64,000 nt of DNA. Source: Gordionus sp. m RMFG-2023. Its lineage: Eukaryota > Nematomorpha > Gordioida > Chordodea > Parachordodidae. Under the pieces are notes generated by a model that saw only the letters and a program-made list of their open reading frames with translations, was not told where the DNA came from and searched no databases. Below, piece by piece: positions 13,829 through 63,729 of the stretch (within the stretch, counting starts at the first letter, position 1; every line of letters starts with the position of its first letter). Made by a program: the position numbers and the translations under genes. The stretch covers positions 13,888,052 through 13,952,051 of the forward strand of contig NC_088776.1 in the NCBI RefSeq assembly GCF_954871325.1. Reading direction: 5' to 3'.

Positions 13829-16800
13829 TCACGGTAAAGCCATATTCAATTTTTTCTTACTATTTTGTGATAACATCTCTGGGAATATGATGTCAAAGAT
13901 TACTATGATGTCACCTCTCTTATCTAGTTCCTTTTTAGAATTAGAATTAAAATTAGTAGTTGAATCGGTTGAGTAAGGTAGACCTTTGCCTGTTATTCTG
14001 ATCTCGGATTTGGTATGCAAGACTTTATTCGAAACCTCCAACCTATAAGTTTGTCCATTACCTTCCAACAAGGGTACACTAATTGCTACCCCACATAAGG
14101 CTTCTTTCAGGCTAACTTTAGCTACGTACTTTAAATCTTGTCCCCACGTGCCTTGTCTAATGAATAATGGGTGAGGTTTTTCGTGTAATATAAATATAAT
14201 GTCGGCTTGACAACTTTCACCCGGCATCTTATTTCCCGCTTTAGGAAACACAATTTGGGAATCATTTCTCACTCCTGGCCTAACCTTGATTTCCAGTATT
14301 CTTTCGTTTTCTCTTTTATTTTATTAAAAATTATTATTACGATTAAACTTCAGGTAACCAATAGATGGAGATTTTTTTTCGACATGTGGAATATATATAT
14401 AAGGGCTCAGTATTAATAGCTAGGAGAGTAAATGTTATAAAAGTTAATGTAATGTTATCAGGCACGTAGTTAGCGAAAAGGGGATAATCCTCCCTCTCCT
14501 TGTAGCAAAAATTTTGAAAAAATATATGATAGTTTCATAAGAATTGCAAAGTATTCTCAAATAGGCTATATTCTATTCTAAATATTAGCTAAAAGAAAAT
14601 TAATTAAATATTTATTCCTTGTATAGCAATATTTTATCTCACGAAAATTTAAATTATATTTTCTTACATTTTTTAAACCTTAAACACTGATGGATATTAT
14701 AAAATTTTATCAACCAAAAAAAAATTTATTAAAAAATTTCTTCCGTATATGAAATGTTCAGATATCCAAATAGACAGAATTTGCTGAATATAATTATTTA
14801 TGGATCTTCTTGTGTTACAGGAAGAAAGAAACTGCGAAAAGCAAACCCGACAAGATAGGGCCTTCGACCGCTATCAAGCTTTTACAGCATTTTATGTATC
14901 TTGATTAGTCTATTTGAAGTGCACTTGGGAAAATATCGGAATGGCCCGTATTATTGGATTTAATGTTAGTGGCAATTTTTTTCATTGGAATGTGTTAATA
15001 AATTATATATTACATAACAATTTTAAGCAATAATTTTCAAAAAAATGATATGTATTTGGCTGAAGGTATGAGAATTGCAAATATTATTATATTACAACTT
15101 AGAAAACTAAGAGATAATATCGACTAAGAATTTCTCGAGATTTATGTGATTGTTGAGGCGATGCGAAGTTATATGATACCGACAAACAAATCGTTCCAAT
15201 AATAACGTGGACTCAATTAAGATTTTTATAATATAACTGTTTTTATTCCCCTTTTGGATACATTTTTGACTCAAATCAATGAACTATTTGTGATTTAACA
15301 TATGGCACCATCCAATTTACGAATACTATATCTTTAAACTCCCTCTGATCTGAGGATATACTAAATCTTGATATGGATAAATTAAATATTTAGCTAATCT
15401 TATTCAGAGGATATAAATGTATCTGAAGGCCATTTAATTTCAGAATTTAAATGGTTTGAAAGATTAAATTTAATAGATAATCCTCCAAGAAATACACTGT
15501 AAGTATATTACATAGTTTAAAATAAATTTTATGAGTTTTTCCAAATATATTAAAATTCCTCTATATTTTGGCAATTATACAAGCACAAATGAGAGAACCT
15601 TTTCTTCATTACAGAGAATAAATACTTATCTCAAAAGTATGACATCTTAAAATCGATTGCTAGCTTTACTAATATACATATACATCGAGACCTAACCTAA
15701 CGCAGAATAAATTATTGAAAAATTGGCGCAATGGCAAAGAAGATGAAATTTTCATTTATATATACTATTATTTTGATTAACTTATTAAATTATAATATGT
15801 TAATTTGATTTGTATACCGCTTTATATAGCTATAATATTTTTTAACAGTATTATATTCGCTCTTAAATATTTTTCCCAATATTCTATTAATTGTGTTTGA
15901 AATTATCATATTTTCAAATATGATTGGTTCTAATAAATTTTATATGATTAGTTCTAATAAATTTTTAAAGCTCCAAAAAAACCATTATAATATAAAAAAA
16001 TTACCCCCCCCCCCCCCGCTTCTCGTATAAAAGTTAACATTTTTTAAATAATTTTTTTTTTCAATTGAAAAAACACCTTCTGTGTCAAAATCTGTTTTTG
16101 AAAAATTGAAAAAGTTTTAAAATTTTATAGAAATATATTTTGGACATGTTTTTATTTTTAGGATGCTTAATTCTTCTTTTATGATAAAGTTTCAAAAGTT
16201 TACGAATTTAACATTTTTTAATATTTTGGAAACAGCCATAAGAAAAAATAATCATTTTTTTTCTTTACTTCCCCACGCTTATTAGAATGACTTTGTATAA
16301 GCAATTATATATTTGGTTTCTCTATTTATTTTTTTTGAATGTAATAAAAAAAAACATACCAAAAATATCTATTGCATATTGCCCAATATTGGCATGATTT
16401 TTTCTTTCATTTATAAAAAAAAATAAGCAATATGGTCGTCTCCTGGTTTGATTTATTTTTGTTTAGCCTAGGCTAAACAACTTCTGAACTAGGACATCCT
16501 ATTATGATTTGTTTTAAGTGTTGGTGGCATTGCCATTTTTTGTAATTTATTTTCTGGCTTTTTTTGTTGTTTATTTGGGTTTTTTTAAATGTACTTCTTA
16601 GGCTATTTAATTAAAGCTGTATAGCCGTAAGCAGCCGGCTGTTTAGTAATAAGTCGAACTTGAACATGGCCTATTAACTTTAATTCCCGATAATATTTTA
16701 ACGCAATAAAAATAGATTTTTCTTATCATAGTAAAAATAATTTTTTTTAACGTAAATCGTAATAATTATATTAAATCATTTTTTAAAAAAAACAACAGAG

Positions 16801-38996: not shown

Positions 38997-39503
38997 GTAG
39001 TAAGTAGTGTTGCGTAATCGGCTAAAAACTAAGCCTAAAAATCGGCTAAGCCTATATAAATCTGCTAAAATTAAATTAGTCAAAATTCTGCATCGATGCT
39101 TAATATTAATTATTATTTATTTATTTTAGTAAAATAATTTATTTTATTTATATTTTATTATTATCAACAAATAAACATGATATGATTTAATATTTTTTAT
39201 TTATATTATTATATTTTGAAATGAAAATAAATTTATTTATTTGATGTTATTTTAATAAAAAAAATAATATGCTGCTATATTGTAAAATTTTAATATAATT
39301 TATTAGTGATTTTCACAATCTTCTTTATAAATACATCTTTTATTGAGGAATTATATTGTAAAGTTTATTAGATAAATAAACAATCTTTTATGTGAAATAT
39401 TTTATAATTTTTTTAAAATTATCTATTTTTTTATTAAATGAGGTGGATTTTATGAAACTTTTTTTGATGATTTTATATGATCTTTTTAAGGTTAATATTT
39501 TAA

Positions 39504-40210
39504 TGTGACAATTGTCATAATCGTTATTTTATAAGTTTTTTGAATTTTTTTGAAGAAAATAGGTTAAAATAAGTATTAATAACATGTGTAAATATAAATT
39601 TAGTGAAGATGTACCAAAGAAAAGTGACAATTGTCATAATCGTTATTTTTAAAGTTTTTTGAATTTTTTTGACGACAATATGTTAAAATAAGTATTAATA
39701 ACATGTTTAAATAAAAATTTAGTGAAGATGTACTATAGAAAATTGACAATTGTCATAATCGTTATTTTTAAAGTTTTTTCAATTTTTTTGAAGAAAATAT
39801 GTTAAAATTAGTATTAAAAACATGTTTAAATAAAGATTTAGTGAAGATGTACCATAGAAAAGTGACAATTGTCATAATCGTTATTTTTAAAGTTTTTTGA
39901 TGAAAATATATTAAATTAAGTATTAATAACATGTGTAAATATAAATTTAGTGAAGATGTACCAATGAAAAGTGACAATTGTCATAATCGTTATTTTTAAA
40001 GTTTTTTGAATTTTTTTGACGAAAATATGTTAAAATAAGTATTAATAACATGTGTAAATATAAATTTAGTGAAGATGTACCAATGAAAAGTAACATTTGT
40101 CATAATCGTTATTTTTAAAGTTTTTTGAAGAAAATATGTTAAAATAAGTAGTAAAAACATGTTTAAATAAAAATTTAGTGAAGATGTACCATAGAAAAGT
40201 GATAATTATC
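39504..40210 (+). repeat. Left subterminal array: 118-bp repeats with TGACAATTGTCA core
   Basis: About six tandem units each begin GTGACAATTGTCATAATCGT, followed by a T-rich stretch, AAAATATGTTAAAATAAGTA, TTAATAACATGT and TTTAGTGAAGATGTACCATA. The core TGACAATTGTCA is a perfect 12-bp palindrome and is the best-conserved part. The last unit is cut by the MULE-like insertion at 40211. Confidence 0.85.
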
Positions 40211-40224
40211 GGTTCCATGTCAAT

Positions 40225-40541
40225 TCAGCGAAACTTTTATCGCGAATGGATTTTATAGCAAAACTTTTATCGCGAATACTATTCCGCGAATGCAATATCA
40301 CGAATTTTTTATAGCGAATACATTACCTCGAATACAATATCGCGAATTTTTTATAGCGAAACCTTTAATGCGAATACATTACCGCGAAACTTTTATCGCG
40401 AATCAATAATCGCGAAAATTTTATAGCGAAATCTTTATCGCGAAACCTTTAAAGCGAATACATTATCGCGAAAATTTTATAGAGAAGTTATTATCGCGAA
40501 ACATATATCGTGAAGATATTATAGAGAATTTAATATCGCGA
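40225..40541 (+). repeat. GCGAA minisatellite, left arm
   Basis: The pentamer GCGAA (often TCGCGAA or TAGCGAA) recurs every 14-16 bases, separated by AT-rich bridges such as TTTTAT and TACATTA. It is the left arm of the 40211-46316 element; the right arm is its reverse complement. Confidence 0.8.
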
Positions 40542-40899
40542 TAATTGCTAATAATGACTAATTTATTTTGAATCACTTTTTTATAATTAAATTATTTGAA
40601 TAATATTTTTTTAAAATAGGTTGAAGATTGATTCACAATGATAGTTTGTAATTTTCTTTTAACCTTAAAAAATTTATATAATGATTAATAAACTTAGATC
40701 TTGTTTATGAAATTTGTTATTGAAATACACTTTTTCGCTATCCTATCCTTTTCTTCGAAGTTCTTATTTTATAATAATCGCGCACAATGAACTCAGCTTT
40801 ATCAATATATTAATCATTGAGTTTATTAGTTAAATCTTGATATTTACTGGCGAAATAGATATCTGGGTAGCATTCCTATTTAATGTCTGATGACCTAAT

Positions 40900-41121
40900 T
40901 AGTGTTGTTAAACGGCTCTTTTTGAGCCGATTTTTAAAAACGACTAACTCAATATTTCATCCTGAATAATATTAAGCAAGACTGAAGATTTTGTTTGTAG
41001 AAGGAACAAAGGTTTGAACATCTATTAAAAAATCTCAAGGCTTAGGCAATATTTTTCTGGCTAAAATATTGAGTTAGCCGTTTTTAAAAATCGGCTCAAA
41101 ATAAGCCGTTTAACAACACTA
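40900..41121. mobile_element. 222-bp MITE nested inside the MULE-like element
   Basis: The TIRs are TAGTGTTGTTAAACGGCT and AGCCGTTTAACAACACTA, and the inverted repeat extends inward through GAGCCGATTTTTAAAAACG. Target duplication is GACCTAAT at 40892-40899 and 41122-41129, exact. The first bases match the terminus of the 39005-48500 element (TAGTGTTG...CGGCT), so it may be mobilised by the same transposase. Confidence 0.85.
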
Positions 41122-41129
41122 GACCTAAT

Positions 41130-44100
41130 ATTTATAAATTTATCAATCAATTTTGGCGAGGGTTAGCAGTCAGTCAATTAACCAGTCAAATGACTAGATT
41201 TTGACGGGTCAATTAAACGGGGGAATATTTGACCTGGTCATATAGTCAAATATTCTATAAGATCTGAATATAAAAATATGTTTGAAAAAGAAAAAACGAT
41301 ATAAATACATGTGATCACAATACTGCTATTTATTGAGTTCTTAATATTAAGAAGAGCATTTTACTCATAGTGAATTTAATGAAGTATGTAATATAATAAG
41401 AGAATTAGGCATACTACAGGTGGTGATCAAAATATTTCAAGTTATATTTTACGATCTTTAAAGATATCTTTTTATCTTTTCTGTTTATTTGGGAAGGGGG
41501 GGGGGTGCGTGATTTAGTATAATATCTCAGCATGAATCTCAATTAATTTAAATATAATATTTTGATTTGGGTTCTTATTGAATAAATAATTTTAAAATAT
41601 AATAAAAATATAGCCACACTTATAAAAATTAACAAATAATTAATGACATAATTGATAAATTATAACTATTAAAAAAAAAGTATAGCCGAAATTTAAAAAA
41701 AAAAATTTCTCGTCTGGCTGGTGCCATTCCCTTGGTTATAAATTATAAATATTTTCGCCATTCTTTCCTCTTTATTTCAGAACCTTATAAAATACAATAA
41801 TAAAAATTTTGTTTGTTTTTATATTATAGGCTCAAATTTTTTATATTTGCATTATTTTTTGTGACAAAAATATAGGAAGGTCTACTTTGGTATAAAATTT
41901 AGCAAGCTACATACCGACTCATTCGTCAAGATACAGATTTTATGAGGATATTTACAAATTCTATTATATGTGATCTTTCTCTACCACATCAATCCTACGA
42001 TTAATATTTCAAAAATAACTACCTTTCGTCATACATTATAAAATTATTTTAAATTTCATATTCCTACCCCTTGAGTCATATAGTTGTTTTCCCTTACAAA
42101 TATGATCACTTTTGATGAGCAACATTATTAGTAAAATATTATTATAAATACTCAAGTATTACACTAAAGGGCAAAGTTTAAAATGAGGATTACATTTTCC
42201 TTTTATTCATTAAAGCATGTAAATTTTTTTATATTGGGATGTTTTTGTCCGATGTTTTTTCCCATGGTTATTTTTAACCAGTCTTTGTCCAAATCAGTGA
42301 TTCTTTTAAAATTTTACACTTCAGTTATATATTAAACAAACAAACTATTGGCTTAGACGATATGATATGACAATGCTCTACTTTTTCCTTCACATATTCA
42401 ATAAATAAAAAAATAATTTTTTAAAAAACTTTTTATAATTAAATTTTTTTTGTAAGGATATTTATTCTAAATGTGAATTAGATATCAAAAAATATGGCCT
42501 AAAGGGATCTATTAAAATAAGATAATACGCTATACCATTTCCTATTTTAACTTAAGAAAAGGACTGTGGAGAATATAATCAGGGGTTTGTTACATATCTA
42601 TAAATGATATCAACCCTCTCAAAACTAACCACCTACCAAATAAAAATAATTAAAAAAAGAAAATACAATTCATCCCTTTCCAATTTTATTCAAATAATGA
42701 TAATTATTTCATAACTAACTATCCCCCCTCTAATTTCAATGATGCTCCTCTTATGAGTTCGCAGTTCAAGTTACGATGGAAAAAAAATTGCTTGAATTAA
42801 TTTTGTTATATTATAGCTCTAAAATTCCTTAAGGTTCATAATTATTTAAATATTGGCATTTTGTTAACTTTTTTAAATATACTATATTCTCATTTGATTT
42901 GATAACAATGTAATTGAGCTTAGGTGGCTTCATGTGCATGTCATTGAATAATAAAACTAAAATTAAAATACATCATTTTTTTGGTTATATTTTTTTAAAA
43001 AATATTTTTATTTACCCGCGAAGAGTGGCATTAAAAATTAAAAAATCTCGCTGAATAATAATAAATCTAAATTTTTTTATGAAAACTAGATTTAAGAAAT
43101 TTACGTAAGAAATGTATATGAGATGTCTTACCTTTTCACTTATTACAAAGAACTTATAGGAATATTGAGTTATTTTCTCTAAAACATCCACCAATAATTT
43201 TAAAATCATTCTTCGCTAGGCTTTATTTTAATTGTATGCGGTTTTAGATGAAATAATTAAAATGCTAATGTAATTATAAACGATTTATTATTAATTATGG
43301 AGAATATGGTAAGAATAACTATTATCAGCTTGGATTTTACAGTTTATAAAATCGTTTTTAAATAAGTGTTCTAAACATTGGCGTAGACAAAGGGGAAGAG
43401 CTAAACCTCCCTCACTGGGAAATATGATTAATGACAACTTTCTTGTAAATTGATAAAACTCCTTCCATAGTCTAAAGAAAATTCTTATTTAAAAAACAAC
43501 ATAAAAAAATCTTACAAATCTAGGAATAAACAATACCATCATTTTATTTTATAATCCATTTTCACAATTTTTTTTACAAATTATAATTATAAAACGGAAC
43601 GCTTCTCAGAGAGGTTAAGCGCACTTAATATTACGTTATTAAACAATAGCTCAACCTATTCACTTGATGAAAATAATTAGCTATCCTAATTGTTTTAAAT
43701 TTTACCATAACCAATCCTTCTCATTTTGATATAACATTTTCCAAAGTTGCCGCAAGTTATGTCATCTGTCGGAAAAGTTTCCAAGCTTAATTTTCTTTTG
43801 GCTAAAATATCGAGTATCTTTAAATCCTCATATTTTGAAATAGGAAAAAAGTTGATTTTATAAATAAATATAGTAATATTTTTTTAAGATATTTCATTTA
43901 ATTTTTTTTATTATAATTGCCTTCTTTAGATTCTTTGTTTAATCTTATAATGTTTCAAATTTTTGAAATTCTAATACTTTTTGGTTCATACTTAAAGGTT
44001 TGCTATTGTCTATTTCGCTTATTAAAACTAGTTTTTGTTTATTGACTGGAAAAACTGATTGATGTAATACTAAGTAATAATCTGGCATTTCATATAGTAG

Positions 44101-45764
44101 AGCTTACCTAAAAATATTTGTTTGTTTTCGCATGTTGTTAATCTTGGCAATTTTATCTTATTTTGTCAGTAAAAACTATCTACCAAATGAATTGAAGAAT
44201 CAATGTAATAATTATTGATTTAAGTTCCAGATTTATTGCTTCCGGAAATTTGGTTGATTTTACGCTTTAATGGGTGATATAGATTTTATTTTTCTTATAG
44301 CACGGTTGCCTTTTTGTGTGTGAAAAAAATGACTGAAGAATTAATAAATATTAGCGCAAACCAGCTATTTTCCATTCTATCAATAATGCCTGAATTAGGC
44401 AATTTTTCTTATTTTGCTAATAAACTTTTTCTTTATACTGTCTAAACGAATTAAATTATAATTAATAAGGAACATCGATGAAATTTTCGGAATAAATTAT
44501 TTAAGTTGCTTAAATCATAGATTTGCCAAAATTTTATTACTAATAGTTTTTTCCTTTTACTAGCTATTATACTCGTTTAAGTACTCAATTGGTACTAATA
44601 AAGCAAGAAATATTGATATAATTTACAATTAGTTCGTAGAACTATACAGTCGCCAAATTTAACGGCGATGATATTAAGTATATAAATCCTGTCTATGCCA
44701 CTGTTCTGATACACAAGTTGAAGCGATAAAGAAATTTCTCAGAATTATCAAATTATTATGGTAATTATAGATATAAATATCTTAAACATGATATTTAAAG
44801 AAGTTCGAATATTATGAAAGAATTAAATAAAAATGTAAATATAAGCCTTCCTGATATTGGAATATCTTTATTTTCTTGATTTGGAACATTTTCTATTTAT
44901 TTTCAAAAAATCCTAATTTATTTTAATTCCATTTTATTAGAAAAAATGAGTAAAAGTGCTTACAAATTGAGAAAGAGCGTTTAGCGGTGTTTTCATAAAA
45001 ACGCCTGATTTAAATTGAACTGGTATTATTTTATAAAATGATGAAAACTATTATACGTTTTTTTAATTTTTATATTGTTTAGTTAGACTTGTGAAATCAG
45101 CAAAAATAAAAAACTAAAATAACTGAAGATCGAATGATTTATTTCCATAATTTATTCTTCATAAATATTACAATGTAATCCAATAGAATATTTTGAATTT
45201 TTTTTTTGATAATCATAACTTTGCAGTTATTTCTATTTATTAAAATGCGATAAGAAGAAAAAGGAGAGGTCAAAATATTCAAATAAATTAGTTACTATTA
45301 TATCAGAAAGTTATATCGATGTGCATTATCTAAAAATTATAATTAGGAGGCATTAATTATCAGTAAAATCTTCTATAATTTTTAAAAATAATCTGAGAAA
45401 ATCAATAAAAAATTCTTAGCTTTCCATATAATTTTTCATCTAGATTGGAAAAAAGGTATATCAGGAAATTTTCTTTAAATGACATAAAGCACATGGGGGG
45501 GGGGAAGGGGTTAACTTATTCTGGTAAAAACTTAACCCAAAATGTCCCCTCCATACTTACAACCATGAGTGAGTGAGACCAGAAAGAGTAATGTATTTTG
45601 TATCACATCAGATAAATGTTACATGCTTATTAAATAAACAATACGTAATAAAATATTCTTAAAACATTCGCGTTTATGATTTAAGAAACTTCGGTTGGTA
45701 AATTGATATTGAATATATCAATTTCACTTAAAATGAATTCGTAATTTTCGAAGTCATGCGCTCG
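41130..45764. other. Interior of the MULE-like element, no gene recognised
   Basis: It is AT-rich with G runs at 41496-41505 and 45494-45501. A GGCGTAGACAAAGGGG patch at 43380 resembles a hAT terminus. The longest minus-strand run (43012-43209, 65 codons) has no recognisable motif. Decayed or captured sequence is likely. Confidence 0.35.
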
Positions 45765-46311
45765 CTATAATAATTTCGCGCACATACATTCGCGGTAGAA
45801 AATTCGCTATAAAGAGTTGGCGATTAAAGTTTTGCTATAAGTTTCGCTAAATTTTATTCGCTCTAAAGTATTTGCGGTTTAGGTTTCGCGGAAATAAATT
45901 CGCGATAATGAGTTCGCGATCAAAGTTTCGCTATAATGTATTCGCTATAAAGTATTCGCGGTTAAAGTTTCGCGGAAATAAATTCGCTATAACGAGTTCG
46001 CGATCAAAGTTTCGCTAAAATGTATTCGCTATAAAGTATTCGTGGTTAAGGTTTCGCGGAAATAAATTCGCTATAACGAGTTCGCGATCAAAGTTTCGCT
46101 ATAATGTATTCGCGGTCAAGGTTTCGCAGAAATAAATTCGCGATAATAAGTTCGCGATATTGTCTTCGCTATAAAAGTTTCGCGGAAAAAAATTCGCGGA
46201 ATTGGTTTCGCGATATTGCCTTCGCTATAAAATTCCTTCGCGATAAACGACATTCGCGATAAAAGTTTCGCGAAAAAGTGTTTCGCGATAAAAGTTTCGC
46301 TGAATTGACCT
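45765..46311 (-). repeat. GCGAA minisatellite, right arm
   Basis: TTCGC in various spacers (TTTCGCTATAA, TTCGCGATAA, TTCGCGGTTA) recurs every 12-16 bases. It is the inverse of 40225-40541 but longer. Some sub-blocks of about 100 bases are themselves repeated (for example around 45940 and 46030). Confidence 0.8.
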
Positions 46312-46316
46312 GATAC

Positions 46317-47820
46317 GACAATTATCATAATCGTTATTTTATAAGTTTTTGGAATTTTTTTGAAGAAAATATGTTAAAATAAGTATTAAAAACATGTTTA
46401 AATAAAAATTTAGTGAAGATGTACCATAGAAAAGTGACAATTAGTCATGATCGTTATTTTATAAGTTTTTTGAATTTTTTTGAAGAAAATATGTTAAAAT
46501 TAGTATTGATAACATGTTTAAATAAAATTTAGTGAAGATGTACCATAGAAAATTGACATTGTCATAATGGTTATTTTTAAAGTTTTTTGAATTTTTTGAC
46601 GAAAATATGTTAAAATAAGTATTAATAACATGTGTAAATATAAATTTAGTGAAGACAATGACAAGTGACAATGACAATTGTCATAATCGTTATTTTTAAA
46701 GATTTTGAATTTTTTGACGAAAATATGTTAAAATAAGTATTATTAACATGTGTAAATATAAATTTAGTGAAGATGTACCAATGAAAAGTGACAATTGTCA
46801 TAATCGTTATTCTTAAAGTTTTTTGAATTTTTTTGACGAAAATATTTTAAAATAAGTATATATAACATGTTTAAATAAAAATTTAGTGAAGATACACTCT
46901 AGATAAGCGACAATTGTCATAATCATTATTTTTTAAGTTTTTTGATTTTTGTTGACGAAAATATTTTAAAATGAGTAATAATAACATGTTTAAATAAAAA
47001 TTTAGTGAAGATGTACTATAGAAAAGTGACAATTGTCATAATCGTTATTTTTAAAATTTCTTTAAAAAACTTTAAAAATAACAATTATGACAATTGTCAC
47101 TTTTCATTGATACATCTTCACTAAATTTTTATTTACACATGTTATTAATACTTATTTTAACATATTTTCGTCAAAAAATTCAAAAACTTTAAAAATAACG
47201 ATTATGACAATTGTCACTTTTCTATGGTACATCTTCACTAAATTTTTATTTAAACATGTTTTTAATATTTATTTTAACATATTTTCTTCAAAATAATTAA
47301 AAAAACTTTAAAAATAACGATTATGACAATTGTCACTTTTCTATGGTGCATCTTCACTAAATTTATATTTACACATGTTATTAATACTTATTTTAACAAA
47401 TTTTCGTCAAAAAAATTCAAAAAACTTTAAAAATAACGATTATGACAATTGTCACTTTTCTATGGTGCATCTTCACTAAATTTATATTTTCACATGTTAT
47501 TAATACTTATTTTAACAAATTTTCGTCAAAAAATTCAAAAAACTTTAAAATTAACTATTATGATAATTGTCACTTTTCATTGGTACATCTTCACTAAATT
47601 TATATTTACACATGTTATTAATTCTTATTTTAACATATTTTCGTCAAAAAAATTCGAAAAACTTTAAAAATAACGATTATGACAATTATCACTTTTCATT
47701 GGTACATCTTCACTAAATTTGTATTTACACATGTTATTAATACTTATTTTAACATACTTTCTTCAAAAAAATTTAAAAAACTTATAAAAGAACGATGATG
47801 ACAATTGTCACATTAAAATA
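46317..47820. repeat. Head-to-head arrays of the 118-bp repeat
   Basis: From 46317 to about 47060 the units run in the plus orientation (continuing the array broken at 40210). From about 47060 to 47820 they run in the minus orientation, each ending GACAATTGTCAC. At the turning point the sequence is TTTTTAAAATTTC TTTAAAAAACTTTAAAAA. This is the centre of the foldback. Short frames seen in the array are artefacts of the repeat. Confidence 0.85.
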
Positions 47821-48239
47821 TTATCCTTAAAAAGATCATATAAAATAACATAAAAAAGTTTCATAAAATCCACCTCATTTAATAATAAATAGATAATTTT
47901 AAAAAAATGATAAAAGATTTCACCTAAAAGATTGTTTATTTATCTAATAAAATTTACAATATAATTCCTCAATAAAAGATGTATTTACAAAGAAGATTGT
48001 GAAAATCACTAATAAATTATATTATAAAGAATATTACATTTTTACAATATAGCAGCATATTATTTTTTTTATTAAAAAAACATCAAATAAATAAATTTAT
48101 TTTCATTTCAAAATATAATAATATAAATAAAAAATATTAAATCATATCATGTTTATTTGTTGATAATAATAAAATATTTACATTAAATATAAATAAAATA
48201 AATTATTTTACTAAAATAAATAAATAATATTTTGACTAA

Positions 48240-48480
48240 TTTATTTTTAGCCAATTTTTAGGCTTAGCCAATTTTTAGGCTTAGCCGATTTTTAAGCTTA
48301 GCCAATTTTTAGGCTTAGCCGATTTTTAGGCTTAGCCTAATTAGGTTTAGCCGATTTTTACGCTTAGCCTAATTAGGTTTAGCCGTTTTAGGCTTAGCCG
48401 ATTTTTAGGCTATACCTAATTAAGCTTAGCCGATTTTTCCACCTAAAATCTCGGCTAAGCTGTTTTTAGTCGGCTAAAAT
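48240..48480 (-). repeat. Subterminal minisatellite TTTTTAGGCTTAGCC
   Basis: About ten copies of a 15-24 base unit, (A)ATTTTTAGGCTTAGCCG, lie just inside the right terminus of the 39005-48500 element. The left terminus has only two to three copies (39015-39060). A related motif (GGCTAAG.CTAAG) appears at 63050-63200, outside this element. Confidence 0.75.
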
Positions 48481-48759
48481 TAGCCGATTACGCAACATTA
48501 GTAGTAAGTATTAAATCGATTAAAGTTTAAAAAACGATAATGAATTTTATTTTTAATTCTTTTGTATATATACATTTATATAATTATCTAATTTAACTTC
48601 TAATAATATGCAATTTGATTAACCTCGATAATATAATATTACATGTCGGAAAGTTATAATATAATATACAAATAACGTCCTTTTAAAATATATAACGTGA
48701 CCTTTTAAAATATATCTTACAATAATAAATATTCAAATGTAACAGTAAGTTAAATTTAT

Positions 48760-55728: not shown

Positions 55729-56879
55729 ATGAAATATATATTGGTTACTGGAGGTGTTATTAGTGGGATAGGAAAGGGAGTTGTAGCTAGTAGTATTGGA
55801 ACTCTATTAAGATGCTATGGTATAAAAATAACATCTATCAAAATAGATCCTTATATAAATATTGATGCTGGTACATTCTCACCATATGAGCATGGTTATT
55901 TACATTTTAAAATTTTTTGAAATAGTTTATATATAGGAGAGGTATTTGTATTAAATGATGGAGGAGAGGTCGATTTAGACTTGGGAAATTATGAGAGATT
56001 TTTGGATATAACATTAACTAGTGATAATAATATAACTACAGGTAAGATATATCTGGATGTTATAACAAATGAGCGTAAAGGAAATTATTTAGGCAAAACA
56101 GTGCAAGGTTTTTTATTTAAAAAGAAATAAATTAAATATTGAATAGTTGTTCCTCACATAACAAATGCAATACAAATGTGGATTGAAAAAGTATCAAAAA
56201 TTCCTGTAGATGATAGTGAAACTGAGCCTGAAATTTGCATTATAGAGGTAAATTATAATTTATAATTTGCAAAAAATATAATTATTAGTTAGGAGGCACT
56301 ATTGGTGATATTGAAAGCATGCCATTTGTTGAAGCTTTTAGACAATTTCAATTTAAAGTTGGAAAAGATAATTTTTGTGTTGTTCATGTTAGTCTTGTAC
56401 CTCAAGTATATTTAAATTACTTATTTTTATATATAATTTAATCTAATAAAGTTATCTAGTGGTGAACAAAAAACAAAACCCACACAAGCAAGTATAAGAG
56501 ATCTAAGAGGTTTAGGATTGACTCCAGATTTTGTAAAAATTATTTAATAAATATGATTTTATAAAACTTTTATTATTAGATTGTGGCAAGGTGCATTGAT
56601 AAATTAATGCCCTCAGTTATTGACAAAATTGCACATTTTTGCCATGTTAGCTCAGATCAAGTAATTTTTATATTGATATTTAATGAGTTAATTTATTTTG
56701 TATATAAGGTGTTTGCTCTTCCAGACATATCAAATATATATCAAGTGCCAGTGATAATTCATGAACAAAATTTTATCAAACAATTATTTAATAAACTCTC
56801 TATGTCTTCCTCATTATCTAATTTGAACACCAAATATTTTTCAAAGTGGAAATCTATAGCAGAAAAGTTTGATTTATAA
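55729..56879 (+). CDS. CTP synthase, synthetase (amidoligase) domain only, seven exons
   Basis: Exons are 55729-55894, 55937-56107, 56147-56247, 56289-56405, 56452-56532, 56580-56660 and 56709-56879. All introns are GT...AG and 39-48 nt, and the joined frame has 295 codons before TAA. The start [17 protein letters not shown] carries the ATP-binding loop. [58 protein letters not shown] and GEQKTKPTQ are CTPS hallmarks. The enzyme normally converts UTP to CTP using ammonia from a C-terminal glutaminase domain; full proteins are about 550-600 residues. Here the frame ends at [11 protein letters not shown], the interdomain linker. A weak out-of-frame trace of the next segment (NIAHITK) follows at 56910. 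No GVCLGMQ glutaminase motif is present. Either the gene is truncated, or the rest lies elsewhere after rearrangement. Confidence 0.85.
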
Positions 56880-57589
56880 AACATAAAATTTAGAAGATTT
56901 AATATTGCGCATATCACAAAGTAACATTGTATTTTTTTTTAAAAAATGCAGACAATAGTGTTACTGTTTAGGGTCATGCAAAAACTTTTGGTGGCCCAGG
57001 GCATATATTAGTTCAGCAGTCCTGCTAAAAGAATGCTTACTTATGTGAATGAATTTTTCGGTATGCAAACTTTCATATGGGAAAAGCTCGTAGGTACTTC
57101 CTATCGGTGTTGATAGCAGGGTTTAACATTTGCTCAAAATTCAAAAATCTTCACAGATCGTTGCTCTTTTGAAGATCAAAAAATGCGAAGATTTTTTCGC
57201 TAAAAAAAATTTTGAGCTTGCTCAAAGAAGATTTTTGAGCAAAATAAAAAATATTTTTTGTAAAAAAATCTTCTATAATTTTGAGAAAATATTTTGAGAA
57301 TTTTATAATAAAATAAAATCTTTTGTAAGGAAATCTTTATTAAAATATTTTTGAAATTTTGATCTTAAAATTTTTTGGTAAATTCTTTAAAAATAAAATT
57401 TTTGATATATATTTTTTTTTATTTTATTATGTTAATGAAAATATTTTTTTTGAATAGGTTGTGAATGTGAGAATTGGTCATAATACCGACTGCATTTTTT
57501 TTAATATTTGGAATAAGTAATAATGATTATTTTAAAAATGTAATGTCATAATTTTAATGTTTTATATTTAATGTAAACTATAAAAGTGA

Positions 57590-58820
57590 CAATTGTCATA
57601 ATACTCATCTCAGAACCTTTAAAAATAATTATAATTAAAAAAGGCTAGTTGAGCATGTTTTGAGATGGTTTCAGTGATTGTAAAGCATATAAAGGTGACA
57701 ATTGTCATAATACTTATTTCACATATGTTTTAATTGGAAATAGAGAAAAATGATTATTTCAACATGAATTAATATAATGTGTAAACTATAAAAGTGACAA
57801 TTGTCATAATATTCATAACAGAACCTATAAAAATAATTTTATTTTTAGGTATTAAATAGGCGAGAAAAAATTTTTTGAGCATGTTTCGAGATGGTTTTAA
57901 TGATTGTAAAAATTGTCACAATCGTTATTTTTGAACTTTTTTAAAGCAAGTAGATAAAAATTTATTAAATATAAAATTAAATGTGGATGTACCATAGAGC
58001 AGTGACAATTGTCATAATCGTTATTTTTGAACTTTTTTGAATTTTTTTGAAGCAACAGAGTAAAATAATAAATTGTAAACATGTTAAATTGAAATTTAAA
58101 TGTGGATGTACCATAGAAAAGTGACAATTGTCATAATCGTTATTTTTAATCTTTTTTGATTTTTTTTGAAGCAAAAGGGTAAAATTATATATTGTAAACA
58201 TGTTAAATAAAAATTTCAGTGAAGATGTACCATAGAAATGTGACAATTATCATAATTGTTATTTTTGAACTTTTTTGAATTTTTTTAAAGCAAATAGGTA
58301 AAAATATATATTGTAAACCTGTTAAATTAAAATTTCAGTGAATATGTACCATAGAAAAGTGACAATTGTCATAATCGTTATTTTTAATCTTTTTTGATTT
58401 TTTTTGAAGAAACTATATATTGTAAACTTATTAAATTAAAATTTCACTGAAGATCTACCATAGAAAAGTGAAAATTGTCTTAATTGTCATTTTTAATCCC
58501 TTTTAAATTTTTTTGAACTTACATGGTAAAATAATAAATTGTAAACTTGTTAAATTTAAATGTGGATGTACTATAGAAATGTGACAATTGTCATAAACGT
58601 TTATTTTAATCTTTTTTGAATTTTTTTTAAGCAAAAGGGTAAAATTATATATTGTAAACATGTTAAATTAAAATTTCAGTGGAGATCTACCATAGAAAAG
58701 TGACAATTATCATTTTTAATTTTTTATTTAATTTTTTTGAACTTAAAGGGTAAAATAATAAATTGTACACATGTTAAATTAAAATTTCAGTGAATATGTA
58801 CCATAGATAAGTGACATATC
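57590..58820 (+). repeat. Left subterminal array of the 57117 hAT element
   Basis: The outer units (57590-57920) carry AAAGTGACAATTGTCATAAT with longer spacers. The inner units of about 119 bp (57910-58820) read GTGACAATTGTCATAATCGT, then ...AAATTGTAAACATGTTAAAT... and GATGTACCATAGAAAA. At least seven palindromic cores are intact or nearly so. The array ends at about 58820, before the transposase region. Confidence 0.85.
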
Positions 58821-59177
58821 TAATTCTCAACTCCCTTTTAAAATTATTTTAATATATATATTTTGAAATTATCACATTACTCATAGTCATATCCATTATT
58901 TTTAAATTAGGTTAATATGATCTTGTTGGGAAACACTTAAACCTCTGGGCAGATGATAATAGTATCATATATGTTAAATTTTTAGAGCCAACCGGAACGG
59001 AGTTGAACTAGAAAGATGCATCAATATAAACATGATATTTTTGGGATCAACAAATTTAAAAATATTTTTTCTTTAATCTTTTAAATCAATTTTAGATCTT
59101 AGAAACTACTATTTGGATATATCTAGTAAAATACGCCCCCCTCTGATTATACTATTCATACAAAAAATCTAAATCAG

Positions 59178-60075
59178 TTATATATATGAATTTTTATTTA
59201 TTAAAATTTCAATGTAAACAATAACTTTATAATGAAATAGGTTATATAAATAATTATTTAACAATGTACGATTAAGCTTTATAATTAAAATATCATCAAG
59301 TATATCTTTGTCTAATCTTGTCCTTAGAGAGGTTACAGTTAGTGCCAATGCACTAAATGCTCTCTCAACTGAGACCTGGGTGCAAGGAGCAGCAAGAATT
59401 ATTTGAGATAATTTAAATAATTCTGCATCTTGGTGTTTTCTTGAAACCCAATATTGCAAAATATCTTGTGAGGATGGCAATCTTTTGTTGTATAATAACG
59501 ATTTTATTTTTAGCTTGATATCGCTATTACATAATTCATAAAATATAGGTCCCTTCTTGCAATCACGCTCAATGTAAAGGTCAAGTTTTGTTTTTTTATA
59601 ATCACTAGTGGAAGGCATAACTAGAGTTGTATTTTCTTCATGAGGGTCAATAGCTTGCAATTGTTTCCAAGTTGCAAATATATGTTCCTAAAATAAAAAG
59701 ATGTATATTATAAATTTATTAATTTACCCTGGCCAATATTTTATCTTCTTCCAAAGGATATTTTCCATTTTCATAATGGAATCTAGGATCCATATATATC
59801 GCACTACGAAATGCGTCATTTTGAAAAAGATAGCTTTCTATAATGTTTAAACATTCCAACATACTTTTAGATAAATTATTATCCATTTCCTCCAGCTCCA
59901 TTTTGCATTCTAGCCATGAAGCAAAAAAATCACCTATTACAATATTACTTTTTTGTAATTTCATTGTGAATTTGTATAATGGGAAAAGGACTGATGTACC
60001 TAATAGGATAATATCAGAAGAATCGATTAAAAAATGCTCCTTTAGTAATATCTTTGAGATTTTTTTTATTTTGCA
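59178..60075 (-). CDS. hAT transposase C-terminal exons (N-terminus not found)
   Basis: The exon at 60075-59728 reads open and contains SVLFPLYKFTMKLQKSNIVI, then GDFFASWLECKMELEE and AIYMDPRFHYE, the hAT region upstream of the dimerisation domain. A 40-nt intron (59727-59688, GTAAAT...TTTTAG) is removed in phase. The exon 59687-59178 gives DILQYWVSRKHQDAELFKLS, then CTQVSVERAFSALAL and RTRLDKDILDDILIIKLN, the complete hATC domain, ending at TAA. Neither exon has internal stops, so this part may still be expressed. The upstream exons with the BED finger and first catalytic Asp were not recognised in 60076-61140. Its own C-terminal part looks better preserved than any other transposase in the window. 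Confidence 0.75.
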
Positions 60076-61140
60076 TTATATATAAAAAAAAAATTTTGTA
60101 ATTTTTAATTTTAACTTTCTTGTTTTTTCCTTTTATTTTTATTTTCACTTGTTTATTATATTTTGAAATAAAAAATCAGGAATTAATGTTATATAAAATA
60201 AAAAAAATGAATAAAATAATTGTTTTATTGAGGCCAAATAAAACCCCCATTTATAAATTTGGATGGGATACATTTATTTAATGTTTTTTTTATTTATATT
60301 TATAAAAAATCAAATGTTAAATGAAGATATAAAAAATGCATTTTCTTTTCTTTTCGTTTTTCCCATTGTCTCTCTCTCTCCCTCCTTTATTTATTTTTAT
60401 TTAATGTTTTGCCTTATGAATTAAAGAAAATAAAAATCTCAAAAAAATGAAATTTGCTGGTGCCAGCGAGGCGGCACCAGATTGAAAAAAAGTATTATAT
60501 AATTTTTTTTTATAAAATTGAATTCAAATTTTTTTTTAATTTTCATTGCTGTAATGGTACCCAAAACCGATACGTTTTCCCCCTTGAAGGAGGGAGTTTG
60601 ACGGATGGCCTCTTATTCTGTTTATGGCTATTTATATTTTTTCCTGACTCCAATTGCTATATTTCTTTTGTGGTTTATGATAGGTATCAGAGTTTATTGT
60701 AGAAAAATTTATTTGATTGGGTTAAGAATTATTTGTTATACCAAATAAAACTGAATTTGAAATATTTTGAGAATAAGATGGTTCTTCCTGTGAGGAAAAA
60801 TCTAAAAGATTATATATAATAAACAATATAATGTTAATTGGTACCAACATGTAGATGTAGAAAGATTTAAGAGACCTGGAGATAGTGACTATTTTACTAA
60901 TTTTGTAATTTTTAATATCTTAAAAAATGGGAATTTTATTTCCTGGGAATTATATTCATAGATTCTTTTTAATGTTTACCTAATAGATTTTAAATAATAA
61001 ACTAAAGTTAAAATTTTTTAGCCCGCTAATTGTTAAAATTTTGTAACCGATTCGCTCGCACTTTTTAAAATTATTAAGCTAGGCCGCCCAGGGACGGGCT
61101 TCAGCTAAAAACCTGCTAGTTTCAGCAAATAAATTCTAAA
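60076..61140. other. Central part of the 57117 element upstream of the transposase exons
   Basis: The N-terminal transposase exons are expected here but were not identified. There is a short perfect-stem hairpin CTGGTGCC...GGCACCAG at 60457-60480. CT-rich simple sequence lies at 60369-60386. Some GC-richer sequence at 60550-60620 could be a coding remnant on either strand. Confidence 0.35.
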
Positions 61141-62520
61141 ATGATCATAATGATTATGACAATTGTCATTTTTCTATGGTACATCCTCATTTAAATTTTA
61201 ATTTAACATGTTTACAATATATAATTTTATATTTTTGCTTCAAAATAATTCAAAAAAGATTAAAAATAACGATTATGACAATTGTCACTTTTCTATGGTA
61301 GATCTCCACTGAAATTTTAATTTAACATGTTTACAATATATAATTTTACCCTTTTGCTTAAAAAAAATTCAAAAAAGATTAAAATAAACGTTTATGACAA
61401 TTGTCACATTTCTATAGTACATCCTCATTTAAATTTTAATTTTACATGTTTATAATTTATTATTTTACCCTTTTGCTTCAAAAAAATTCCAAAAAGATTA
61501 AAAATGGCCATTATGACAATTGTCACTTATCTATGGTACATCCACATTTAAATTTAACAAGTTTACAATTTATTATTTTACCCTGTAAGTTCAAAAAAAA
61601 TTAAAAAAGATTAAAAATGACGATTAAGACAATTTTACTTTTCTATGGTAGATCTTCAGTGAAATTTTAATTTAATAAGTTTACAATATATAGTTTCTTC
61701 AAAAAAAATCAAAAAAGATTAAAAATAACGATTATGACAATTGTCACTTTTCTATGGTACATATTCACTGAAATTTTAATTTAACAGGTTTACAATATAT
61801 ATTTTTACCTATTTGCTTATAAAAAAAGTTCAAAGATAACAATTATGATAATTGTCACATTTCTATGGTACATCTTCACTGAAATTTTTATTTAACATGT
61901 TTACAATATATAATTTTACCCTTTTGCTTCAAAAAAATTCAAAAAAGATTAAAAATAACGATTATGACAATTGTCACTTTTCTATGGTACATCCACATTT
62001 AAATTTCAATTTAACATGTTTACAATTTATTATTTTACTCTGTTGCTTCAAAAAAATTCAAAAAAGTTCAAAAATAACGATTATGACAATTGTCACTGCT
62101 CTATGGTACATCCACATTTAATTTTATATTTAATTAATTTTTATCTACTTGCTTTAAAAAAGTTCAAAAATAACATTGTGACAATTTTTACAATCATTAA
62201 AACCATCTCGAAACATGCTCAAAAAATTTTTTCTCGCCTATTTAATACCTAAAAATAAAATTATTTTTATAGGTTCTGTTATGAATATTATGACAATTGT
62301 CACTTTTATAGTTTACACATTATATTAATTCATGTTTGAAATAATCATTTTTCTCTATTTCCAATTAAAACATATGTGAAATAAATATTATGACAATTGT
62401 CACCTTTATATGCTTTACAATCACTGAAACCATCTCAAAACATGCTCAACTAGCCTTTTTTAATTATAATTATTTTTAAAGGTTCTGAGATGAGTATTAT
62501 GACAATTGTCACTTTTATAG
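61140..62520 (-). repeat. Right subterminal array of the 57117 hAT element
   Basis: It is the reverse-complement counterpart of 57590-58820, with about ten TGACAATTGTCA-type cores (for example near 61157, 61275, 61394, 61513, 61737, 61972, 62084, 62290, 62391 and 62499) and one extra unit relative to the left. Reading frames across it are repetitive artefacts. Confidence 0.85.
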
Positions 62521-63000
62521 TTTACATTAAATATAAAACATTAAAATTATGACATTACATTTTTAAAATAATCATTATTACTTATTCCAAATATTAAAAA
62601 AAATGCAGTCGTATTATGACCAATTCTCACATTTACAACCTATTCAAAAAAAATATTTTCATTAACATAATAAAATAAAAAAAAATATATATCAAAAATT
62701 TTATTTTCAAAGAATTTACCAAAAAATTTTAAGATCAAAATTTCAAAAATATTTTAATAAAGATTTCCTTACAAAAGATTTTATTTTATTATAAAATTCT
62801 CAAAATATTTTCTCAAAATTATAGAAGATTTTTTTACAAAAAATATTTTTTATTTTACTCAAAAATCTTCTTTGAGCAAGCTCAAAATTTTTTTTAGCGA
62901 AAAAATCTTCGCAAAAAATTGATCTTCAAAGATTTTTTCCTCAAAATTTTGGGCGAAAAAAATCTTCAAATTTTTATTTGAAGATTTTTGTAAAACCCTG

Positions 63001-63729
63001 GTTGATAGTGAAACTATGGTTAAAATTTTTGGCTTGGATAGATGTATAGGTGGGTAATCGATTTAGCCTGGTCGATTTTTTTAGCTAAGGCTAAGTGCAT
63101 TTTTCTTGGCTAAGAATAAGCCTAAGCCTATTTAAGCACATTTATTTTGGCTAAAACTAAGCCTTAACCGATTTTTTTGGCTAAGCCTAAGCTAAGTGAC
63201 AAAATAACTTCATTTGGTTTCTAAACTCAATTTAAATTAGAGATCTGCAATGTCCAGTCCATGAAAATAATTTATGGCAGACATGATAGAGAATACCCTG
63301 CACCAAATTGACATTTAACTCATATCCTTCACAATAAATTAAAATTAAAAAAAATTTTTAAGTACCACCCACTCCCCATTATCATGGTGGTACAATATAG
63401 AGAAAAACCCGCCCATTCAATTAAAAATAACCTGCCCACCCAGCCCACCCATTTATCTAAAACTCCTTGCCCGTCCGCCCATTAGTCTAAAAATTTTTAC
63501 CCGCCCACCCATTATTTATAAAAAATTTTTAACCCAAGCCCGCTTATATAAAATTTAATTATGGTCATTCTTTCATTTTTTAAATATCTAATAAAAATAT
63601 TTCAGAATTACACCTCTACAAAAATTTTATAATTTATGAAATTAATATAAGTATAAAAATAATCAATGTAAATTATGGACAATTTATTTGATCAAATTGA
63701 ATATTTATGAAAAAAATATAAATGTAAAA
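63001..63729. other. Repeat-rich flank with GGCTAAG and CCCGCCCA motifs
   Basis: GTGGGTAATCGATTTAGCCTGG at 63050, followed by many GGCTAAG/AAGCCTAAG units to 63200, resembles the terminus and minisatellite of the 39005 element, so another member may begin here. At 63360-63550 several CCCGCCCACCC blocks occur, as in hAT elements with C-rich ends. No complete element could be delimited. Confidence 0.4.

What the first reader, a model, noticed from the sequence alone, without database searches (positions are those of the whole stretch)
57117..63000. hAT transposon with kilobase arms made of palindromic-core repeats
hAT elements normally have short TIRs (10-30 bp) and scattered short subterminal motifs. 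Here each arm of about 1.8 kb carries an ordered array of units of about 119 bp with the perfect palindrome TGACAATTGTCA, and the centre encodes a hAT transposase with an intron. This resembles an amplified transposase-binding array and could be an undescribed hAT architecture.
Basis: partly seen in the sequence, partly recalled or inferred. Interest (0 to 1): 0.85.

Follow-up and report, generated by a model that had tools for sequence, protein, structure and literature searches.

The report
hAT transposon with foldback repeat arms
A jumping gene of the hAT kind in a horsehair worm carries kilobase-long mirror-image arms built from a repeated 119-base unit, an architecture known from other classes of jumping genes.

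Summary
The finding is real. Window 57117-63000 is one copy of a repeated element in Gordionus (Nematomorpha): CAGGG ends, an exact 8-bp target duplication, and inverted arms of 1.70 and 1.85 kb with 23 palindromes (17 exact). Of 20 copies with both ends (window plus 19), 20 carry arrays and 17 have matching 8-bp duplications. Long copies encode a hAT transposase with a Hermes-like core. The window copy is a deletion derivative keeping the last 244 of 612 residues. The array is not specific to this element: two further families with hAT-type ends, one encoding a transposase 56% identical, carry the same 119-bp unit in inverted arms, and its 27-bp core occurs 16,576 times in the genome. I read it as a foldback-type hAT lineage whose arrays most likely serve as multi-site transposase landing platforms. 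Anatomy is shown; binding is inferred. Against it: when units were located by their flanks alone, the palindrome was not the best-conserved stretch, and in Hermes inner binding sites seemed dispensable. Six library searches listed no foldback hAT. Verdict: new variant of a known kind.

The parts
57109..57116 (.). left target-site duplication GTTGATAG
57117..58816 (+). left arm: terminus CAGGGTTTAACA, about 450 bp subterminal region, then palindromic-core array
57587..58712 (+). left array, 11 palindromes (7 exact, 4 with 1-2 mismatches)
59178..59687 (-). last exon of the truncated hAT transposase gene, with hATC dimerisation domain PF05699
   Evidence: (E=9.3e-12)
59688..59727 (-). 40-bp intron, GT...AG
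   Evidence: read; exon ends
59728..60076 (-). remnant: start of exon 1 (frame broken) fused to residues 369-464
61147..63000 (-). right arm, inverted copy of the left; terminus TGTAAAACCCTG
61157..62511 (-). right array, 12 palindromes (10 exact, 2 with 1-2 mismatches)
63001..63008 (.). right target-site duplication GTTGATAG
39005..48500 (.). family 2 element with related 119-bp arrays (39505-40207, 46317-47059 and, inverted, 47064-47811); ends TA[GA]TGTTGCGTAATCGG; GTAGTAAG on both sides (38997-39004 and 48501-48508)

Best explanation
It is a non-autonomous, internally deleted copy of a recently active hAT transposon family with foldback arms, in a horsehair worm. Shown: ends, 8-bp duplications, arms, arrays, many near-identical copies, long partner copies with a BED-finger and Hermes-fold transposase gene, and the same 119-bp array in two further families with hAT-type ends. 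Inferred: the arrays are subterminal platforms for the transposase. Each unit offers a two-fold symmetric site (TGACAATTGTCA within a conserved 27-bp core) to paired BED fingers; many sites per arm concentrate a multimeric transposase, which then cuts at the short CAGGG terminus. Deleted copies like this one are moved in trans. Unit number drifts by unequal exchange, and recombination between arms flips the centre.
For: 17 of 20 two-ended copies have matching 8-bp duplications, one left-type and one right-type end each; 20 of 20 carry arrays. Hermes is found at E=3.1e-31 with a profile of 29 relatives, and the model of P0003 matches only Hermes chains at E<=0.001 (12 of 12); zf-BED exceeds its cut-off in P0003 and P0004. 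Family 3, with a transposase 56% identical, has the same array in both arms. The three unit consensuses agree over a 27-column run that contains the palindrome. The BED finger is 24 of 29 identical between families 1 and 3, higher than any 29-residue window of the rest. In C1:1-18.09 Mb, 6 of 9 relatives with 49% identity or more lie within 9 kb of a core, against 3% of random points. Precedents: Galileo arms hold repeated THAP sites (PMC3688188, abstract and discussion); Hermes BED fingers bind a quasi-palindromic pair cooperatively (PMC10368747, passages).
Against: No binding or transposition data. Units located by flanks alone: the palindrome ranks 15, 36 and 8 of 65 twelve-column stretches in families 1, 3 and 2. 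The outer units of family 3 have imperfect palindromes. Unit number varies widely (18 to 38 palindromes per copy), and L056 keeps an array on one side only. 3 of 9 close relatives have no core within 9 kb, and 1 of 5 distant hATs does (the last compared by eye). PMC10368747 judges binding of auxiliary transposases at inner Hermes sites unlikely (passage), which speaks against the analogy.
Confidence: 0.55

Rival explanations
1. Passive arms: the array is a satellite-like repeat that expands in hAT arms by unequal exchange and spreads with them, with no role in transposition.
For: Unit number varies from copy to copy; 16,576 cores genome-wide; the palindrome is not specially conserved; L056 retains units on one side only; satellite DNA arose from the arm repeats of Tetris (PMC4079207, passages).
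Against: The same core is kept in three families behind different ends and the BED finger is the best-kept part of two diverged transposases.
Confidence: 0.3
2. The array is bound by a host protein, for example a TALE homeodomain factor (TGACA half-sites, recalled, from no call), and controls expression or chromatin of the element.
For: Two-fold symmetric TGACA half-sites in each unit; the conserved core is longer than the palindrome.
Against: Non-coding family 2 copies keep the arrays although no gene is there to regulate. Not tested further.
Confidence: 0.1
3. A hAT element with ordinary short ends inserted into a pre-existing satellite array.
For: The core is abundant in the genome.
Against: The termini lie outside the arrays, with matching duplications in 17 of 20 copies; four partly matching sites (72-77%) run through the joined window flanks without an insert.
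Confidence: 0.02
4. The arms are kept because a read-through transcript folds into double-stranded RNA that feeds host silencing, so their length reflects host control rather than transposition.
For: Arms are near-identical inverted copies; such transcripts are proposed for inverted-repeat elements in a mosquito (PMC3259105, passages).
Against: It does not explain a conserved core or the shared finger. No small-RNA data were at hand.
Confidence: 0.03

Closest known systems
Galileo (P superfamily, Drosophila)
   Same: Long inverted arms with internal tandem repeats; several transposase-binding sites in the arms; structurally fluid, with deleted copies (PMC3688188 abstract and discussion, PMC3573991 abstract).
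   Different: P-type transposase with a THAP domain; here a hAT transposase with a BED finger and no THAP match in Pfam.
Hermes (hAT, housefly)
   Same: Transposase fold and dimerisation domain, BED finger, subterminal repeats including a quasi-palindromic pair (PMC10368747, passages).
   Different: Its binding motifs are short and crowd the first tens of bases; it has no kilobase arms or 119-bp units.
Tm1 and other Mutator-type foldbacks
   Same: Composite long inverted repeats; coding and non-coding members (PMC3169594, abstract).
   Different: 9-bp duplications and a Phantom/Mutator transposase; here 8 bp and hAT.
Tetris (Drosophila virilis foldback)
   Same: Arms up to 1,735 bp with tandem repeats (PMC4079207, passages).
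   Different: Non-coding, suggested by its authors to be Mutator-type; its repeats gave rise to satellite arrays.
TU elements (sea urchin foldbacks)
   Same: Foldback arms with tandem repeats and, as I recall, 8-bp duplications: a possible earlier foldback hAT.
   Different: Recalled only; the library search listed no TU paper, and Tetris mentions sea urchin foldbacks in passing. No comparison was possible.

Membership tests
hAT superfamily | 8-bp target-site duplication | tested here: met
   17 of 20 two-ended copies match exactly; L012 and L015 do not, L030 is masked
hAT superfamily | termini of the CAGNG/TAGNG kind (rule recalled) | tested here: met
   CAGGG, CAGAG and TAGTG in families 1, 3 and 2
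hAT superfamily | hATC dimerisation domain | tested here: met
   PF05699, E=9.3e-12 in the window copy
hAT superfamily | RNase H-like DDE core of the Hermes type | tested here: met
   Met for long copies and relatives. In one search, D248 and E572 of Hermes (by my count) face D and E; D180 faces S, with a D four residues on. The window copy lacks the two D regions
hAT superfamily | BED-type zinc finger | tested here: met
   P0003 22.4 and P0004 21.2 bits, cut-off 20.6; P0001 as annotated starts too late to score
hAT superfamily | short terminal inverted repeats (usual, not strictly defining; recalled) | tested here: not met
   inverted arms of 1.70 and 1.85 kb
hAT group (Ac, Buster or Tip) | place in a transposase tree | not tested
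   no reference set at hand; duplications favour T at 2 and A at 7, 22 of 34, a pattern that I recall for Ac-type hATs
Foldback (structural class) | long inverted arms with internal tandem repeats | tested here: met
Galileo / P superfamily | THAP domain and P-type transposase | tested here: not met
   Pfam scans list no THAP; Hermes is the match
Mutator-type foldback | 9-11-bp duplication and MULE transposase | tested here: not met
   8-bp duplications; hAT transposase
transposase-binding array | unit bound by the element's transposase | not testable with these tools
   needs a binding assay

The most novel reading that the evidence does not exclude
In this worm the recognition signal of a hAT lineage has moved from short family-specific ends into a shared, portable array of palindromic 119-bp units. 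Families with different termini keep the same array because their BED fingers read the same core, so transposases and non-coding copies of different families can cross-activate or compete. The genome carries this signal at 16,576 places (by arithmetic about 2 Mb, 0.7% of the assembly).
Probability: 0.3. Interest if true: 0.75.

Novelty: new variant of a known kind. Interest (0 to 1): 0.58.

Why it matters
Foldback arms are known from Mutator-type and P-type elements, and what their repeats do remains uncertain (PMC3688188 discussion). A foldback hAT with coding partners, several related families and a structurally understood relative, Hermes, makes the question testable: do arm repeats feed a multimeric transposase or are they passive? 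If confirmed, foldback arms arose in a further superfamily. It also explains a genome-wide repeat in a phylum for which the listings of two library searches showed no transposon study.

Tried and rejected
Short hAT inserted in a satellite: rejected, since the ends lie outside the arrays. Family 2 as a Mutator-type foldback: suspected at first from a long shared flank; placing the terminus at TAGTGTTGCG gave exact 8-bp duplications in the window, L049 and L056 and 7 of 8 in L050. Concerted evolution within copies: not seen, left and right arms of one copy 98.6% identical on average against 98.5% between copies. Palindrome as the one constrained site: tested without anchoring on it, not supported. 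Array-free copies: the closest pair of family-2 ends among those listed (1,221 bp) was fetched because it looked array-free; it has four units, on one side. Control with a distant hAT (P0017): places obtained, but the flanks of a copy could not be fetched, so the control rests on few loci.

Rows dropped and limits: L019 (one end only in the stretch) is left out of the 20 elements. Searches scored 40, 150, 40, 40 and 86 of 420, 3282, 1254, 1663 and 6220 candidates. One search used the 100 listed of 16,576 core places (exact ones, C1:9191 to 18,087,509) and the 12 hATC places in that stretch. The unit consensuses were built from units that contain a 17-base anchor around the palindrome (5, 11 and 19 units for families 1, 3 and 2), so those 17 columns agree by construction there; in units located by flanks alone the same base still holds the majority in each core column (lowest 0.72, 0.60 and 0.85 in families 1, 3 and 2).

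That no foldback hAT is in print rests on the listings in the held open-licence library and on passages of PMC4079207, PMC1952172, PMC3942097, PMC8504770, PMC3259105 and PMC9659126. Repbase reports and subscription journals were not searched.
Full report
OBSERVATION. The stretch 57117-63000 is a discrete element. It begins CAGGGTTTAACA, ends TGTAAAACCCTG and is flanked by GTTGATAG on both sides. Its arms are inverted copies (57168-58816 against 62930-61283, 95.5%), with one outer stretch of 276 nt 100% complementary. Tandem Repeats Finder reports a 119-bp period in both arms. TGACAATTGTCA with up to two mismatches occurs 46 times in the window (4.26 expected, at most 11 in 100 shuffles); 23 lie in the element, 11 left and 12 right, 17 exact. 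The centre carries two exons on the minus strand, the last with the hAT dimerisation domain (PF05699, E=9.3e-12).

ORGANISM. The window lies in a 287-Mb assembly. The best protein matches, up to 100% identity and from contigs of the same lengths as those of the assembly, bear the name Gordionus sp. m RMFG-2023, a horsehair worm, phylum Nematomorpha.

THE FAMILY. The left end is found at 153 places with up to two mismatches, 56 of them exact, reversed control 0. I fetched 20 copies besides the window one; 19 had both ends in the stretch, L019 did not. Of the resulting 20 elements (window plus 19), 17 have matching 8-bp duplications, L012 and L015 do not, and L030 is masked there. Each has one left-type and one right-type end; the copies were found by the left end, so right-right elements would have been missed. 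All 20 have arrays, with 18 to 38 palindromes (up to two mismatches) and lengths of 5.4 to 8.8 kb. The duplications favour T at position 2 and A at position 7 (22 of 34 symmetrised positions, p=0.001 for an assumed background of 0.37), a pattern that I recall for Ac-type hATs. Four partly matching sites (72-77%) run through the joined window flanks without an insert.

CODING COPIES AND THE WINDOW COPY. Long copies carry the gene of P0001, a 612-aa protein in NCBI. The main 411-aa exon is open in 5 of 20 elements (L011, L013, L014, L015, L020). Eleven of 20, the window included, share one internal deletion that fuses the first 20 or so residues to residue 369. These copies lack the BED finger and the regions of the first two catalytic aspartates, so they must be moved in trans if at all (inference). 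The gene lies on the minus strand relative to the left end in 13 of 20 and on the plus strand in 7 of 20; within the shared-deletion class the split is 6 and 5. The centre has therefore flipped more than once, as expected from recombination between inverted arms (inference).

THE TRANSPOSASE. A profile of 29 relatives finds Hermes at E=3.1e-31. In the alignment of P0003 with Hermes, D248 and E572 (by my count) face D and E, while D180 faces S with a D four residues on. The model of P0003 (mean pLDDT 74.8, pTM 0.67) has 12 PDB matches at E<=0.001, all Hermes chains, with target-normalised TM-scores of 0.56-0.74. zf-BED exceeds its curated cut-off in P0003 and P0004.

SAME ARRAY, OTHER FAMILIES. 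The window holds a second element, 39005-48500, with arrays 76-79% identical to the first in the pieces over 700 bp, ends TA[GA]TGTTGCGTAATCGG and GTAGTAAG on both sides (the right end read from that output). Copies L049 and L056 have exact 8-bp duplications and L050 matches at 7 of 8. The one frame of 80 aa or more in that stretch is an 85-aa frame in other repeats, so this family-2 copy looks non-coding. The family-2 end occurs at 448 places with up to one mismatch. A third family, ends CAGAGTTGTACA (219 places with up to three mismatches), encodes P0003, 56% identical to the family-1 protein outside the N-terminus. Its copy at C1:62880497-62890235 is 9,739 bp, with CTTTCAAC on both sides and the array in both arms.

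GENOME-WIDE. The 27-bp core occurs 16,576 times with up to one mismatch, reversed control 0. In C1 up to 18.09 Mb the 100 listed exact cores form 28 clusters: 9 in convergent order, 0 divergent, 19 in one orientation only. In that stretch 6 of 9 hATC relatives of 49% identity or more and 0 of 3 below 40% have a core within 9 kb (3% of random points do). Two further distant hAT loci lie there, and one of them is 4 kb from a core (compared by eye), so distant hATs stand at 1 of 5. The association with one clade is suggestive, not clean.

IS THE PALINDROME CONSTRAINED? For: the unit consensuses of the three families agree at 89 of 119 columns; the longest agreeing run, 27 columns, begins one base before the palindrome and contains it (p=0.004 in column shuffles). 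Those units were picked with a 17-base anchor on the palindrome, but in units located by flanks alone the same bases hold the majority in each core column. The three outermost left-arm units keep all 12 bases while their surroundings have drifted (22-24 of 40 and 23-34 of 67 bases kept); these too were picked by the palindrome. The BED finger is 24 of 29 identical between families 1 and 3, higher than any 29-residue window in residues 85-680 (best 0.79), between stretches of 39% and 29%. Against: with units located by flanks alone the palindrome is only one of several well-kept stretches (ranks 15, 36 and 8 of 65 in families 1, 3 and 2), and outer family-3 units have imperfect palindromes. I conclude that a core of about 27 bp or more that includes the palindrome is conserved, not the palindrome alone. 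Left and right arms of one copy are no more alike (98.6%) than left and right arms of different copies (98.5%), so there is no sign of conversion within copies.

MECHANISM. Known elsewhere: Hermes uses several BED fingers of an octamer on subterminal sites, with cooperative binding to a quasi-palindromic pair; the same paper judges binding of auxiliary transposases at inner sites unlikely (PMC10368747, passages). Galileo's THAP domain binds sites that recur in its long arms, proposed to add specificity and to offset length (PMC3688188, abstract and discussion). By analogy I propose that each arm is a many-site platform for BED-finger pairs. Binding, synapsis and cutting are inferred; none is shown here. 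The main rival is passive expansion of a repeat in the arms, as satellite DNA arose from Tetris arms (PMC4079207, passages).

COMPARISON AND NOVELTY. By ends, duplication and protein this is a hAT; by architecture it is a foldback. PMC4079207 says that most foldbacks seem to be Mutator-type, with exceptions (passage). Six searches of the held library listed no foldback hAT. Sea urchin TU elements, recalled to have 8-bp duplications, could be a precedent that I could not check. Hence a new variant of a known kind.

VERDICT. Its interpretation is partly supported: an amplified binding array is the best but untested reading, and the array is a shared feature of several hAT-type families rather than of this element alone.

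Noticed in passing
window 40220-46308: A further inverted structure with arms of about 14-bp TTCGCGATAAAAGT repeats lies inside the array of the family-2 element; its ends read TCAATTCAGCGAAAC. Possibly an unrelated foldback inserted at a palindrome; its duplication is unclear.
   Followed up: partly
L012 and L015: Family-1 copies whose flanking 8 bp do not match: candidates for ectopic recombination or deletion at element ends.
   Followed up: no
window copy, L016, L017, L021-L023, L025-L029: The shared internal deletion keeps an open frame across its junction in 11 of 11, 9 of them starting MQNKKNLKD, so it could make a short protein without finger and catalytic aspartates, perhaps inhibitory; 5 of 11 have stops in the last exon.
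   Followed up: partly
window 39005-39080, 48240-48500, 63040-63210; L049, L050, L056: Runs of a TTAGCC/GGCTAA-type short repeat form the outer arms of family 2 and also lie just right of the family-1 element.
   Followed up: no
P0039 (Gordionus protein record): A gene model joins a piece of this hAT transposase to a retrotransposon-like polyprotein.
   Followed up: no
window 56580-56879, + strand: Frame of 99 aa with a match to the CTP synthase N-terminus (PF06418, E=1.7e-7, above cut-off), a gene piece left of the element.
   Followed up: no
literature, PMC6649704 abstract: Nematomorph mitochondrial genes are also rich in long inverted repeats; any link with nuclear foldback abundance is unknown.
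   Followed up: no
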